Notes under the pieces: generated by a model
Seen by the model: only the letters and a program-made list of their open reading frames with translations
The model's database searches: none
What the model was told of the DNA's origin: nothing
NCBI GenBank assembly: GCA_020161775.1
Contig: JAIUOW010000020.1
Coordinates: 34,382 to 98,381 of the forward strand
DNA length: 64,000 nt
Origin: Pseudomonadota bacterium
Lineage (GTDB): Bacteria > Pseudomonadota > Gammaproteobacteria > Burkholderiales > Burkholderiaceae_C
Reading direction: 5' to 3'
In this document: positions 40,438-53,762 of the stretch, piece by piece
Numbering within the stretch: position 1 is the stretch's first letter
Layout of the letters: every line of letters begins with the position of its first letter
Made by a program: the position numbers and the translations under genes

Positions 40438-40824
40438 GGGGCTGCACTGGTTTCGACGTGGGTTCGGACGCGTGGCAGGGCATGTCGAGCTGAATGTGCT
40501 CGTAAAACAGATTCAAACAAACTAACTGCAAACGACGAACGTTTCGCACTCGCCGCTTAATTGCCGGTGAGCTTTGCAACAGCAGGCCTCTGGGCTGGGC
40601 AAGGGGTCTTTAGCGCAAGTTAAGGGCTCCCGGCTGCAAAGATAATTTCAGAGGCTGGTCCCGCGTCGGGTAACTTGGCGCGGGACGAGAAAATAGGTTG
40701 CTGGCGTCCTGTTTAGCGTGCCGCTGCGCGATTCAGGAAGCGAGACTCAAACCAGACGGCTACACATGTAGAACTGTGCGAAGAAGGCTTGCGGACGGGG
40801 GTTCAATTCCCCCCAGCTCCACCA
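40438..40824 (+). ncRNA. ssrA: Transfer-messenger RNA (tmRNA)
   Basis: A 387-base tmRNA for rescuing stalled ribosomes. The 5' GGGGCTG pairs with the 3' CAGCTCC before ACCA, with one G-U pair. The D-loop-like start GCACTGGTTTCGACGTGGG and the T-arm with GGTTCAATTCC are canonical. The tag reading frame at 40528-40560 encodes ANDERFALAA followed by TAA, the betaproteobacterial degradation tag. Pseudoknot stems can be seen, for example GGGCTCCCGGC and CCCGCGTCGGG. It is processed together with SmpB, encoded elsewhere. Confidence 0.97.
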
Positions 40825-49293: not shown

Positions 49294-50172
49294 ATGAGCC
49301 TGCTGCTTGACTCTTTCTGGCGCGCCGTGGCGTACTGCGTGCACCCGCGCGTGATTGCACTGTCGTTCCTGCCCCTGGTGCTGATGGTGGCGCTGGCCCT
49401 GGGGCTGGGCTACCTTTACTGGGAGCCGGCCATCGATGCGGTGCGCGGGCTGCTGGAATCCGCGGACCTGCTGCAGGGTTTCTGGGCCTGGCTGCAGGGC
49501 ATGGGCGCTGGCGACCTGAAGTCCGTGGTGGCGCCGCTGATCGTGATCTTCACCGTCACGCCGGTCATCGTGCTGCTGTCCCTGATCATCGTGGCCGTGG
49601 CCATGACGCCGTCGCTGGTGGCCATGGTGGCCGAGCGCCGGTTTGCCGCGCTGGAGCGCAAGAAGGGCGGCTCGCTGCTGATGAGCCTGGCCTGGTCGCT
49701 GGGCTCCACGCTGCTGGCTGTGGTGGCGCTGGTGGTGTCCATGCCGCTGTGGCTGGTGCCGCCGCTGATCCTGGTGTTGCCCCCGCTGATCTGGGGCTGG
49801 CTCACTTACCGCGTCATGACCTTCGATGCGCTGGCCGACCATGCGAGCGCTGCCGAGCGCCGCGAGATTTTCCGCCGCCACAAGGCGTCCTTGCTGGGCA
49901 TTGGCATCCTGACCGGTTACCTGGGCGCAGCCCCCAGCATCGTATGGGCCTCCGGCGCGCTGTTTGCGGCGGCCTTTGTCATCCTGGTGCCGGTGGCCAT
50001 CTGGATCTACACGCTGGTGTTCGCGTTCTCGTCCCTCTGGTTCGCACACTACAGCCTGGCGGCGCTGGAAAGGCTGCGCGCCGAAGAGGCTGCTGCTGCG
50101 GTGGCCGTCACGCCGGCGGCCGAACCGCTAGCATTGGCAGATGGTGCGACTCGAAGTCGCTCTTGTAGCTGA
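49294..50172 (+). CDS. EI24 domain membrane protein, C-terminus altered by the group II intron
   Basis: A 292-residue EI24/CysZ-like protein with four or more hydrophobic segments (e.g. SFLPLVLMVALALGLGYLYW; VVAPLIVIFTVTPVIVLLSL). Up to Asp at codon 50141-50143+1 the sequence is genuine. The last residues (GATRSRSCS) are encoded by the intron's 5' end. If bases up to 50143 are joined to 52926, the frame instead runs ...EPLALADDSAKPDLPPPA and stops at a TGA, which I take as the native end. The change affects only a polar tail, so the unspliced product may still work. Confidence 0.82.
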   Translation: MSLLLDSFWRAVAYCVHPRVIALSFLPLVLMVALALGLGYLYWEPAIDAVRGLLESADLLQGFWAWLQGMGAGDLKSVVAPLIVIFTVTPVIVLLSLIIVAVAMTPSLVAMVAERRFAALERKKGGSLLMSLAWSLGSTLLAVVALVVSMPLWLVPPLILVLPPLIWGWLTYRVMTFDALADHASAAERREIFRRHKASLLGIGILTGYLGAAPSIVWASGALFAAAFVILVPVAIWIYTLVFAFSSLWFAHYSLAALERLRAEEAAAAVAVTPAAEPLALADGATRSRSCS

Positions 50173-52925
50173 ACTAATCAGCCTTCATAGGAGTGCGTTT
50201 CCCCTCTGGGAGCGCAACGATTTCCTCCCTGGAAATCACTCAGAAATGGTCGAATTAATGCCACGCATTTTTCGACCGGAGGGGCCCACCTTGGGCCTCC
50301 TCGCAACAAAATTCGGCCTCACGGCAGGGATTTTTGTTGCCTGAACGCTACAGTTACAAAATAAAAGTACTGTAGCCGCCGCCTCTCCGGGCGGCCAACA
50401 AAGCGGCACCGCTTTTGGTGCCTTGTTTCTCACCGAAACCACTTTTGGAATGAAGTGACCTCGTCTGTGCGTGCATCTTGGGTAACTGAGTTGTGCGGAG
50501 CCATGGATAAACGACCCGCGCGCAAGCGCACAAATCCGGCGCGAGCTGGATGAATTTCAAGAACAAGACTTGAGAGGGTGGCCGAGGTATAGGGCAAGGG
50601 AAACACAAGTGAACGTTCGCGAGAACCGCCGTCACAATGAAGTAGCTAACTCTTGTGTCCCGGGGCAACCTGGGGAGCTACGGCCAAAAGGCAACGCGTC
50701 TGAGACTGAATGTCATCTACTTCAGTCTGTTCCCATTGAACGCGCGGCGGATAGAACGTCCCTAACCCCATCTTCCGGCCTGCCGGCCGGATGGGCACCA
50801 AGGGAAACGAGGTAAACCCGACACATCGCCACCGCCAGTACGGGGTGGCAACCGAAGCGCAAGCGACGGCCATGGTGTAGCGGGTAGAGGAAGAAGCAAA
50901 AAGCGAATGCCGGCCTGTAACGGGCCGGATAGGGGTTCAAGATTTGCCCCAGCGTGAAAGCGCGCTGACTTGCTTCAGGTGCGACGGCGTAAAGCCTTTG
51001 CAAACTTCAACATGGCCCCGCGGGTAGTCTGCCCGCAGGGGCAGACCTTCGCCCAATGGGTCTCCTCACTGGAGAAGGTATGGCAACACAGCGAAGTGCT
51101 CCGGCACCTCGCGCTGCGTCTTCAGGCGAGCAAATGGATTGGCACCTAGTTGACTGGGGGCTGGTTCAGATGTTTGTCGGGAAGATGCAGACGCGCATTG
51201 CGCAGGCAGAAATGGACAAGGACTATCGACGGGTCAAACGACTTCAGAGAAGCCTTGTTCGATCCTGGCAGGCCAAGGCATTGGCGGTCAGGAAAGTTTC
51301 CGAGAACCAAGGGAAGCGGACGAGTGGCGTCGACCGCGAACTATGGCCTTCACCGAAGGCCAAATGGAATGCGGTGTGTCGATTGAACAAACAGGGATAT
51401 CGGGCGAAGCCTCTGAGGCGCGTCTGGATCCCAAAGACGAACGGCAAGGAGCGCCCTTTGGGCATTCCAACACTGTTCGACCGGGCGATGCAGGCCTTAT
51501 ACCTGCTCGCGCTGGAACCGGTGTCAGAGTGTGCGTCCGACCCAAATAGCTACGGCTTTCGTAAAGGACGATCAACCCACGATGCCCGGAGCCAGTTGTT
51601 CGTGTCGCTATCCCAGAAGGCTTCGGCCCAATGGATTTTGGACGCGGACATCACGGGATTCTTCGACAACATCAACCACGAATGGTTGCTAGCGAATGTT
51701 CACATGAACAAACGCATTCTCCGAAAGTGGTTGAAAGCAGGTGTCGTCGACAGAGGACAACTGCACAGCACCGAGATGGGAACGCCGCAAGGCGGGATCA
51801 TTTCGCCGACATTGGCGAACATCACCTTGAACGGGTTGGAGCGCGGACTCAAGCAGTACCTTAAAAAGGAACTCGGGTCCAAAGCGGCTGACAAGGTGAA
51901 AGTGAATCTGGTTCGATATGCCGACGATTTTGTGGTGACGGGCGACTCGAAGGAGCTGCTTGAATCCATGGTCATACCTTGGATTGTGGAATTCCTGCGC
52001 GAGCGGGGTCTGCAGTTCTCTGAGGAGAAGACCAAGATCGTGCACATCGATGAAGGATTTGACTTCTTAGGGTGGAATTTCCGGAAGTACGACGGAAAGA
52101 TGCTGATCAAGCCGAGCAAGAAAAACGTGAAAGCGTTCTACAGCAAGGTGAGTGAGGGCATCGGAAGTTCGCTGTCAGTTCCAACTGAACTGCTCATCAG
52201 AAAACTCAATCCAGTGCTCCGCGGCTGGGCTGAGTACCACAAAGGAGTGGTTGCCAAAGCGACGTTCTCACGACTTGACCACCTGATTTACTGGAGGTTG
52301 ATGAAATGGGGACGGCGCCGGCATCCTAGAAAGTCGGGCAAGTGGGTCTACGACCACTACTGGCCACAACTCGGCTCACGCCGGGCCATGGCCGTGCACT
52401 TGCCCGATCAGAATGGGGATCTGAGGTCGCTGGTCTTGTACCAGCTTGCGGACACGATAATTGTCCGCCATCAGAAAGTCGACGGGAAATACAACCCGTT
52501 CGACCCTGCGTGGTTTGCCTATGCGGAACGGTTGCTGACGGCCCGAATGTCGCAAGACATCTGGGACACCCAGCGCCTGAAGCTGTGGTTGCAGCAAGGC
52601 GGCAAGTGCGTCTTGTGTGAGCAATTCATTGACAGTACGCGCGCTATGGACGATCACCACATCGTCTACCGCGAGTACGGAGGGAGCCATGCTCTTTCCA
52701 ACCGCGTGCTTCTGCACCCGGTCTGTCACCGGCGGGTACACGCCCTCGGTTTGGAGGTAACCAAGCCGGTCCCAGCACGGGGACTTTAATCTGGAGAAGT
52801 AGACTAGGGTTATGCAACCCAATGAAGCTACCGATCCAGTGGTCGTGCTTGAGCCGGATGCGTCGAAAGGCGCACGTCCGGTTCTTAGGGGGGAGGGAGG
52901 CCGAGAGGCCTCCTTCCTACCCTCC
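50144..52925 (+). mobile_element. Group II intron, full length, with encoded maturase
   Basis: The 5' end starts GTGCGACTCGAAGTCGC, matching the GUGYG consensus. Domains I-III fill 50144 to about 51050, a stretch with no gene but much structure. Domain IV carries the protein gene at 51080-52789. Domain V is canonical, 34 bases, at 52851-52884 (GAGCCGGATGCG, GAAA loop, CGTCCGGTTC). Domain VI follows with the bulged adenosine at 52919. The 3' end is at 52925 by reading-frame reconstruction of both flanking genes, or 52927 by the terminal AY rule. It lies directly behind the ATG of the downstream gene and reads in the same direction, so it can be spliced from that mRNA. Confidence 0.93.
51080..52789 (+). 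CDS. ltrA: Group II intron reverse transcriptase / maturase with HNH endonuclease domain
   Basis: A 569-residue intron-encoded protein. Reverse transcriptase blocks include FRKGRSTHDARSQLFVSL, WILDADITGFFDNINHEWLL, GTPQGGIISPTLANITLNGL and the catalytic YADD at residues 280-283. The maturase X domain follows (LNPVLRGWAEYHKGVV). The C-terminal HNH nuclease has a zinc-type CVLCEQ and DDHHIVYREYGG...CHRRVH. All catalytic residues appear intact, so the intron may be mobile. I chose the ATG at 51080 after GGAG; an upstream ATG at 51056 is less well placed. Confidence 0.95.
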   Translation: MATQRSAPAPRAASSGEQMDWHLVDWGLVQMFVGKMQTRIAQAEMDKDYRRVKRLQRSLVRSWQAKALAVRKVSENQGKRTSGVDRELWPSPKAKWNAVCRLNKQGYRAKPLRRVWIPKTNGKERPLGIPTLFDRAMQALYLLALEPVSECASDPNSYGFRKGRSTHDARSQLFVSLSQKASAQWILDADITGFFDNINHEWLLANVHMNKRILRKWLKAGVVDRGQLHSTEMGTPQGGIISPTLANITLNGLERGLKQYLKKELGSKAADKVKVNLVRYADDFVVTGDSKELLESMVIPWIVEFLRERGLQFSEEKTKIVHIDEGFDFLGWNFRKYDGKMLIKPSKKNVKAFYSKVSEGIGSSLSVPTELLIRKLNPVLRGWAEYHKGVVAKATFSRLDHLIYWRLMKWGRRRHPRKSGKWVYDHYWPQLGSRRAMAVHLPDQNGDLRSLVLYQLADTIIVRHQKVDGKYNPFDPAWFAYAERLLTARMSQDIWDTQRLKLWLQQGGKCVLCEQFIDSTRAMDDHHIVYREYGGSHALSNRVLLHPVCHRRVHALGLEVTKPVPARGL

Positions 52926-53762
52926 ACTCCGCAAAGCCAGACCTCCCACCCCCTGCCTGACCCTGCCGCCGGCATCGGCCTTGTCATCGTCGGCGACGAA
53001 ATCCTGTCGGGCAAGCGTGCCGACAAGCACATGGACAAGGTCATCGAACTGCTGGCCGCGCGCGGCTTGGCGCTGGACTGGGCCGAGTACGTGGGGGACT
53101 CGCCTGGACGCATCACCGCCACGCTCAAGCGGGCATTTGACGGCGGCGGCCTGGTGTTCTGTACCGGCGGCATCGGTGCCACGCCCGACGACCACACCCG
53201 CCAATGTGCCGCGACGGCGCTGGGCGTGGGGCTGCAATTGCACCCGGGCGCCGAGGCGCTGATCCGTGAGCGCATGCAGGATGTGGCGCGCGAGCAGGGC
53301 GTGCCCTACGAGCCCGACCGGCCTGACAACATCCACCGGCTGAACATGGGGGTGTTCCCTGTGGGCGCCCGCCTCATTCCCAACCCCTACAACAAGATCG
53401 CCGGTTTCAGCGTGGGCCATGTGCATTTCGTGCCGGGCTTTCCCGTCATGGCCTGGCCCATGGTCGAGTGGGTGCTGGATACCCAGTACGCCCCACTGTT
53501 TCGCCAGGCCGCCTGGGCTGAGAAATCAGTCATCGTCTTTGGCGCCATGGAAGCTTCCCTGACGCCGCTGATGGAAAACATCGAACAGGCCCACCCCGGC
53601 GTGAAGGTGTTCAGCCTGCCCAGCGTGGACCACCCCCAATATGGCCGCCACATCGAACTGGGCGTCAAGGGCGCGCCGGTGGCGGTGGAAGGCGCCTACA
53701 CGGCGTTGCTGTCGGGGCTGCGGGGCTTTGGCGCGGAGCTTGGCCCTGAATTGGTGCGTTGA
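52812..53762 (+). CDS. Molybdopterin-binding-domain protein (CinA/MoaB-like), start codon separated by the intron
   Basis: From 52926 on, 279 codons encode a protein with a MoCF_biosynth domain: GIGLVIVGDEILSGKRADKH, VFCTGGIGATPDDHTRQ, and NPYNKIAGFSVGHVHFVPGF. Such CinA-N-type proteins are of unclear function (competence-damage or molybdopterin binding). The native start appears to be the ATG at 50141-50143, which after splicing reads MTPQSQTSHPLPDPAAGIG. In the unspliced RNA, an ATG at 52812 inside the intron is in frame and would add 38 intron-encoded residues; I give these coordinates as the present open frame. Confidence 0.88.
   Translation: MQPNEATDPVVVLEPDASKGARPVLRGEGGREASFLPSTPQSQTSHPLPDPAAGIGLVIVGDEILSGKRADKHMDKVIELLAARGLALDWAEYVGDSPGRITATLKRAFDGGGLVFCTGGIGATPDDHTRQCAATALGVGLQLHPGAEALIRERMQDVAREQGVPYEPDRPDNIHRLNMGVFPVGARLIPNPYNKIAGFSVGHVHFVPGFPVMAWPMVEWVLDTQYAPLFRQAAWAEKSVIVFGAMEASLTPLMENIEQAHPGVKVFSLPSVDHPQYGRHIELGVKGAPVAVEGAYTALLSGLRGFGAELGPELVR

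What the first reader, a model, noticed from the sequence alone, without database searches (positions are those of the whole stretch)
50141..52928. Group II intron inserted exactly after the start codon of one gene and inside the overlapping end of another
Seen: joining base 50143 to 52926 gives ATG-ACT-CCG and an open CinA-like frame (MTPQSQTSHPLPDPAAGIG...). The same join restores the EI24 gene to a natural end (...ALADDSAKPDLPPPA, stop). Both genes regain sensible termini from one junction. The intron reads in the sense direction and its maturase looks intact. Inference: splicing is needed for the native start of the molybdopterin-binding-domain protein, so the intron may act as a post-transcriptional switch on translation initiation.
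Basis: partly seen in the sequence, partly recalled or inferred. Interest (0 to 1): 0.8.

Follow-up and report, generated by a model that had tools for sequence, protein, structure and literature searches.

The report
Mobile introns that land in promoters

Summary
The larger result lies outside the given coordinates. The four other copies of this type in the genome also read ATG|GTGCG. Among relatives, the best sigma70-like -10 hexamer in the 100 nt upstream ends 9-12 nt before the intron in 50 of 54 non-redundant sites (background 4-5%), in 10 of 10 further in-clade introns, and, at score >=4, in 0 of 24 outgroup introns. Insertion is therefore about 3-5 nt past the expected transcription start; in one mainly Comamonadaceae subclade it is directly behind an ATG, usually a start codon. 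Each copy carries its own EBS1 and EBS2 matching its site, EBS2 pairing with the 3' half of the -10 box. Genes hit include secA, serS, glnS, def, guaB, hemB. I read this as a promoter-targeting group II intron lineage. A regulatory switch is not supported. There is no RNA evidence, and two relevant papers could not be read.

The parts
50129..50134 (+). TAGCAT, sigma70-like -10 hexamer (inferred promoter of the CinA-like gene), inside the 3' end of EI24
   Evidence: best -10 match in the 100 nt upstream; TAGCAT/TACCAT-N6-ATG kept at the intron-free site of L105, L107, L121
50132..50136 (+). IBS2 (CATTG), overlapping the 3' half of the -10 hexamer
   Evidence: 5 bp with EBS2; same layout in 50 of 51 sites
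50139..50143 (+). IBS1 (AGATG), its last three bases being the start codon
   Evidence: 5 bp with EBS1
50141..50143 (+). ATG start codon of the CinA-like gene = last codon of the 5' exon; expected transcription start at its A (inferred)
49294..50143 (+). EI24/CysZ-type gene, 5' exon part; reads on into the intron to a stop at 50170-50172 if unspliced
   Evidence: Pfam PF07264 E 2.8e-33; ORF list; joined end
50144..52925 (+). group II intron, 2782 bp
50635..50639 (+). EBS2 (CAATG)
   Evidence: covariation scan and per-copy pairing
50714..50718 (+). EBS1 (CATCT)
   Evidence: covariation scan and per-copy pairing
51056..52789 (+). intron-encoded reverse transcriptase/maturase with HNH domain, 577 aa (start codon not settled)
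52849..52925 (+). domains V and VI; bulged A at 52919
52926..53762 (+). 3' exon: CinA-like molybdopterin-binding-domain gene without its ATG
   Evidence: PF00994 E 3.7e-23

Best explanation
The element is a mobile group II intron of a Pseudomonadota lineage that retro-inserts into host promoters. It enters the sense strand 9-12 nt past the end of the -10 hexamer, about 3-5 nt past the expected transcription start. In one subclade, mostly of Comamonadaceae, this falls directly behind an ATG, usually the start codon of a gene with no room for a leader. Recognition, as I read it: EBS1 pairs with the last 5-6 nt (in the subclade including ATG); EBS2 pairs with the 3' half of the -10 hexamer and the next 2-3 nt; the invariant TA at the start of the hexamer is read by the protein or is simply open DNA. 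The host promoter then transcribes the intron, and splicing gives back the native mRNA, which is how a copy can sit in front of essential genes. Shown from sequence: position, spacing, gene context, pairing, intron-free promoters. Inferred: transcription starts, splicing, recognition of TA by protein, selection for harmlessness.
For: Window and four other own copies all ATG|GTGCG with open genes behind. -10 hexamer in place in 50 of 54 non-redundant sites, against 4.0% of 4000 random positions and 4.7% of 10576 ATGs; 10 of 10 further in-clade introns not identical to earlier sites; at score >=4 none of 24 outgroup introns. EBS1 fully paired over 5 positions in 46 of 51 (exons swapped: 3.7%) and EBS2 run >=5 in 50 of 51 (swapped: 13.8%); IBS2 covers hexamer positions 4-6, never 1-2. 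The guaB promoter box exists without intron: TATAAT in 24 of 30 intron-free relatives, one base off in 6. The window's own -10/ATG exists intron-free. Motif TANNNT-N6/7-ATG marks real starts in 9 of 15 other places, any ATG in 356 of 5105.
Against: No -35 enrichment. No transcription start or spliced RNA is known. If transcription starts at the A of ATG, only 3 nt of 5' exon remain, and RmInt1 excision fails when IBS1 positions -7 to -5 are changed (PMC3123198, passages). 24 of 29 relatives lack the -10/ATG motif at this gene. Gene-context tests are crude: first caller 22 of 47 against 19%, second 37 of 47 against 23%. Within ATG sites 15 of 19 pass a start-codon test, no clear gain over 9 of 15 motif controls. 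Two subclade members, L031 and L039, end in TTG followed by TAG, so not at a start codon. Sites are phylogenetically related. The tree's support for the whole clade is only 80 (SH-aLRT).
Confidence: 0.75

Rival explanations
1. The intron enters DNA opened by RNA polymerase: the non-template strand of the sigma70 open complex is single-stranded up to about +3, just where the intron lands, and the RNP uses this bubble.
For: Sense strand in all sites analysed by construction of the motif; the three most conserved hexamer bases T, A and final T are those sigma70 needs most (recalled); spacing shifts of 9-12 nt fit variable start sites.
Against: The motif alone already marks promoters in these genomes (9 of 15 real starts), so no polymerase is needed; no -35 enrichment; EBS2 pairs inside the hexamer that sigma would occupy.
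Confidence: 0.25
2. No targeting: insertion is guided by EBS pairing alone and copies elsewhere were lost; only those transcribed from a promoter and spliced without harm survive.
For: EBS1 and EBS2 are tuned to every site, so pairing is clearly used; intragenic copies would be purged.
Against: Selection for being transcribed would tolerate any place in a 5' leader, not a 9-12 nt window behind the hexamer (50 of 54). The seven outgroup introns and 17 survive elsewhere.
Confidence: 0.15
3. One reading: a gene-specific switch controlling translation of the CinA-like protein.
For: Splicing does restore the native start.
Against: Same placement at many unrelated genes; intron-free relatives do without; in-frame ATG inside the intron.
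Confidence: 0.05
4. A single lucky insertion of an ordinary homing intron.
For: Each copy has ordinary EBS/IBS pairing.
Against: Five own copies and 54 non-redundant sites follow one rule.
Confidence: 0.02

Closest known systems
Thermosynechococcus T.el4h and relatives (CL/IIB1 introns; PDB 6me0) and EcI5
   Same: Maturase is closest to 6me0_C among solved chains (E 2.8e-166). IBS1/IBS2 pairing, and preference of the RNP for A/T at -13 to -16 (PMC2882425, passages). Copies there too carry different EBS sets.
   Different: There the passages describe ordinary homing sites and twintrons; no promoter rule is described in what I saw.
Group IIC introns (terminator- or attC-targeting)
   Same: They recognise a functional element of transcription, not just a sequence (PMC4424553, passages).
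   Different: They sit behind terminators; ours behind the -10 box. Ours has an HNH domain and long EBS1 and EBS2 pairing.
Azotobacter groEL intron at the stop codon (recalled; the groEL intron appears only as a reference title)
   Same: Intron at a gene boundary of an essential gene.
   Different: Stop codon of one gene, not a lineage-wide promoter rule.
Yeast Ty3 (recalled)
   Same: Works like it: a retroelement inserting within a few nt of transcription starts.
   Different: No kinship: integrase, Pol III genes, host factors TFIIIB/C.

Membership tests
group II intron | 5' GUGYG and domain V/VI with bulged A | tested here: met
group II intron | reverse transcriptase/maturase ORF in the intron | tested here: met
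group II intron | EBS1-IBS1 and EBS2-IBS2 pairing | tested here: met
group II intron | 3' terminal AY dinucleotide | tested here: not met
   the window copy and four own 3' halves end ...CTACCCTCC; other members end ...CCGAC or ...CTAC; a known variation point, not used to exclude
group II intron | splicing and mobility activity | not testable with these tools
   only multiple copies and tuned EBS suggest past activity
CL/IIB1 class | maturase kinship with T.el4h | tested here: inconclusive
   closest solved chain 6me0_C; formal class profiles not available
group IIC intron | insertion behind an intrinsic terminator | not tested
   no terminator scan of the sites was made; the sites follow a -10 rule
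leaderless gene (host site) | -10 hexamer about 6 nt before ATG, no room for Shine-Dalgarno | tested here: met
leaderless gene (host site) | mapped transcription start at the A of ATG | not testable with these tools
   no RNA data

The most novel reading that the evidence does not exclude
A retroelement that uses bacterial promoters themselves as its attachment sites, probably through DNA melted at the -10 box, so that the host promoter fires straight into the intron and the 5' exon of the mRNA is only 3-5 nt long (in one subclade, just the start codon). Such introns would have to splice with almost no 5' exon while keeping EBS2 matched to untranscribed promoter DNA purely for homing.
Probability: 0.35. 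Interest if true: 0.95.

Novelty: new variant of a known kind. Interest (0 to 1): 0.82.

Why it matters
A 2015 review lists three target specificities for bacterial group II introns (homing sites, terminators, attC; PMC4424553, passages), and the abstract of PMC6003770 (listing) says they seldom interrupt housekeeping genes. A lineage tuned to promoters, in front of genes such as secA, serS, glnS and def, would be a fourth specificity, would give genomic markers of leaderless promoters, and raises a testable puzzle: how an intron splices with a 3-5 nt 5' exon. Each copy being retuned to its site also offers natural guides for insertion at transcription starts.

Tried and rejected
A -35 box at 15-19 nt spacing: not enriched. 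A conserved reading frame from the exon ATG into the intron: 67 codons in the window, 8 in several relatives, not conserved. A simple longest-ORF gene caller for the context test gave a weak contrast, 22 of 47 against 19% of 922; a codon-based caller gave 37 of 47 against 23% (35% of 167 stronger hexamers). Of the ten missed by the second caller, L015, L023, L032, L034 and L042 do have an open frame of 184-669 codons behind ATG and L067 has def at +34; L061 and L063 have unidentified ORFs at +14; L014 and L059 stay unclear. Intron ending at 52927 (AC) instead of 52925: rejected, it breaks the frames and moves the bulged A to -9.

Rows dropped before counts: 8 of 80 loci had no 5' end in the held DNA (L016, L018, L030, L035, L036, L038, L055, L082); L017 had only 6 nt upstream; 77 full sites were thinned to 54 by 40-nt identity. 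EBS counts used 71 of 77 aligned introns, 51 non-redundant. Where two GTGCGA candidates existed I took the one with the family's 5' sequence. The four sites whose best hexamer lay elsewhere (L027, L032, L033, L047) have a weaker hexamer in place. first gave 11 of 11; L187 proved identical to L024 and was dropped, leaving 10, of which L173 and L189 are one site and L193 is guaB again. Outgroup: 3 of 24 have their best hexamer at -9 to -12 nominally (L194, L202, L204) but with scores 1.5, -0.6 and 1.5; the 17 thin to 12. L131, L141, L182, L195 had no 5' end and L142 was ambiguous. L031 is frameshifted and falls at the root of the tree; L042 shows ATG outside the ATG subclade.

Literature: ten searches found no report of promoter targeting; passages only were read in PMC4028801, PMC8919778, PMC4424553, PMC2882425 and PMC3123198. 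Michel et al. 2007 (Specialized lineages of bacterial group II introns) and Waldern et al. 2020 are not held, so they may already describe part of this.

Full report
OBSERVATION. The intron runs 50144-52925: GTGCG at the 5' end, Rfam domains V/VI to 52925, bulged A 52919. ATG 50141-50143 is joined to ACT CCG at 52926, giving a 279-aa CinA-like frame, and EI24 then ends ...LALADDSAKPDLPPPA. The maturase ORF is unbroken with RT, maturase and HNH domains.

EMPTY SITE. The CinA-like gene was found in 50 of 60 relatives; the 29 best loci were read. Five of 29 have a -10-like hexamer six nt before ATG without an intron: L105 and L107 TAGCAT-tgccgg-ATG, L121 TACCAT-tgccgg-ATG, L116 TACGAT-gcgctc-ATG, L104 TAAGCT-cggggc-ATG; the window has TAGCAT-tggcag-ATG. 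In L105, L107 and L121 the EI24 frame overlaps the CinA frame as in the joined window. The other 24 have a different start.

OTHER COPIES IN THE GENOME. A DNA search of the genome found the window copy, four 5' halves and four 3' halves at contig ends, and one diverged copy. All four 5' halves read ATG|GTGCGACTCGA. The four 3' halves continue as open frames for MlaE, a PAS/HisKA protein, quinolinate phosphoribosyltransferase and DUF924. Which halves belong together is not known. The diverged copy (60% maturase identity, one TAA inside) reads TACAAT-gcgccgatca|GTGCGACACG, so it is not behind ATG but keeps the -10 spacing.

FAMILY RULE. A scan of GTDB genomes found 358 relatives, of which 80 were kept. 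With the genome's own copies this gave 78 5' junctions, 77 with 100 nt upstream, 54 non-redundant. The best sigma70 -10 hexamer in those 100 nt ends 9-12 nt before the intron in 50 of 54 (49 with score >=4), against 4.0% of 4000 random positions and 4.7% of 10576 ATGs in the same loci. Hexamer bases T1, A2 and T6 are at about 82-85% outside the ATG subclade. No -35 box is enriched. Sites are related by descent, so the binomial value overstates the case.

FURTHER TEST. Maturase searches of 398 and 250 more genomes gave 11 in-clade introns with a readable 5' end, all 11 with the hexamer in place; one, L187, was identical to an earlier site, leaving 10. Among 24 outgroup introns (7, 17; maturase identity up to 53%) none has it with score >=4; three have it nominally with scores of 1.5 or less. 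In a maturase tree of 91 rows the promoter lineage forms one clade (SH-aLRT 80) and the window lies in a 26-row subclade (100) whose readable sites end in ATG apart from one TTG.

PAIRING. A covariation scan over 77 introns, made without assuming a place, found EBS1 at 50714 and EBS2 at 50635. Over 51 non-redundant introns EBS1 pairs at all five positions in 46 and at four or more in 51; with exons swapped among introns these are 3.7% and 19.9%. EBS2 makes a run of five or more in 50 of 51; swapped, 13.8%. IBS2 covers hexamer positions 4-6 (3 in half) and the next two or three bases, never positions 1-2. The five own copies differ at 32% of EBS positions against 9.2% elsewhere, yet each fits its own site. 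If transcription starts at the A of ATG, IBS2 and part of IBS1 are not in the RNA; that pairing would then serve DNA targeting. This agrees with RmInt1, where IBS2 is needed for homing but not for excision (PMC3123198, passages), but RmInt1 also needs IBS1 positions beyond -4, so splicing of a 3-nt 5' exon is an open problem. In the window, read-through RNA of EI24 would contain both IBS1 and IBS2.

PROMOTERS ARE THE HOST'S. At guaB, hit by the intron in L040, L041, L064 and L083, thirty intron-free relatives in the order have TATAAT (24) or a hexamer one base off (6) upstream of the gene. Genes behind the intron elsewhere: guaB, serS, ribF, secA, def, pmbA, psd, efp, glnS, hisZ (all ten scanned) and, in frame behind ATG, hemB, two YceD, UPF0093, YcaO, a transglycosylase, a cytochrome c assembly protein, a TPR and an FAD protein (9 of 10 scanned; L015 no match).

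GENE CONTEXT. With a codon-based caller 37 of 47 sites lie near a sense gene start, against 23% of 922 other -10-like hexamers and 35% of 167 stronger ones; a cruder caller gave 22 of 47 against 19%. In 19 ATG-site loci 15 pass a start-codon test; so do 9 of 15 TANNNT-N6/7-ATG motifs elsewhere, but only 356 of 5105 ATGs. So the motif itself marks leaderless starts in these genomes, and reading that motif would be enough to land behind start codons.

MECHANISM. Most likely the RNP reads the -10 hexamer as DNA: EBS2 its 3' half, the protein (or local melting) the TA. T.el4-type RNPs select A or T at -13 to -16 (PMC2882425, passages), a possible starting point. Entry into an RNA polymerase open complex is not excluded. 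The host promoter then drives the intron and splicing restores the mRNA.

NOVELTY. A group II intron by every sequence feature tested except the 3' AY end; the new thing is the target. Ten literature searches found no such report; two papers that might hold one could not be read.

Noticed in passing
L176, L196, L197, L199, L205 (5' junctions near 560-613 of the maturase strand; tRNA about 760-817 nt into the intron): Outgroup group II introns whose 5' exon is a tRNA-Gly-like half ending in the anticodon loop (cttcccaagc|GTGCGACC), and which carry a complete tRNA-Gly(CCC) gene of their own between the intron 5' end and the maturase: an intron that seems to replace the tRNA it breaks.
   Followed up: partly
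L137 (CP075775.1, whole record): A 2837-bp circular record called a Pseudomonas aeruginosa plasmid begins at the intron's 5' GTGCG and has the maturase as its only CDS: an intron DNA circle or an assembly artefact.
   Followed up: no
flanks of the window and of 18 ATG-site loci: TANNNT-N6/7-ATG passes a start-codon test in 9 of 15 places against 7% of all ATGs, suggesting many leaderless genes in these bacteria.
   Followed up: partly
L018: A contig filed under Akkermansia muciniphila carries a Comamonadaceae-type copy of this intron, probably a binning error.
   Followed up: no
window 50141-50344: Read unspliced, the leaderless ATG opens a 67-codon frame into the intron; lengths vary from 5 to 134 codons among copies.
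   Followed up: partly
window 40438-40824: tmRNA gene on the + strand.
   Followed up: no
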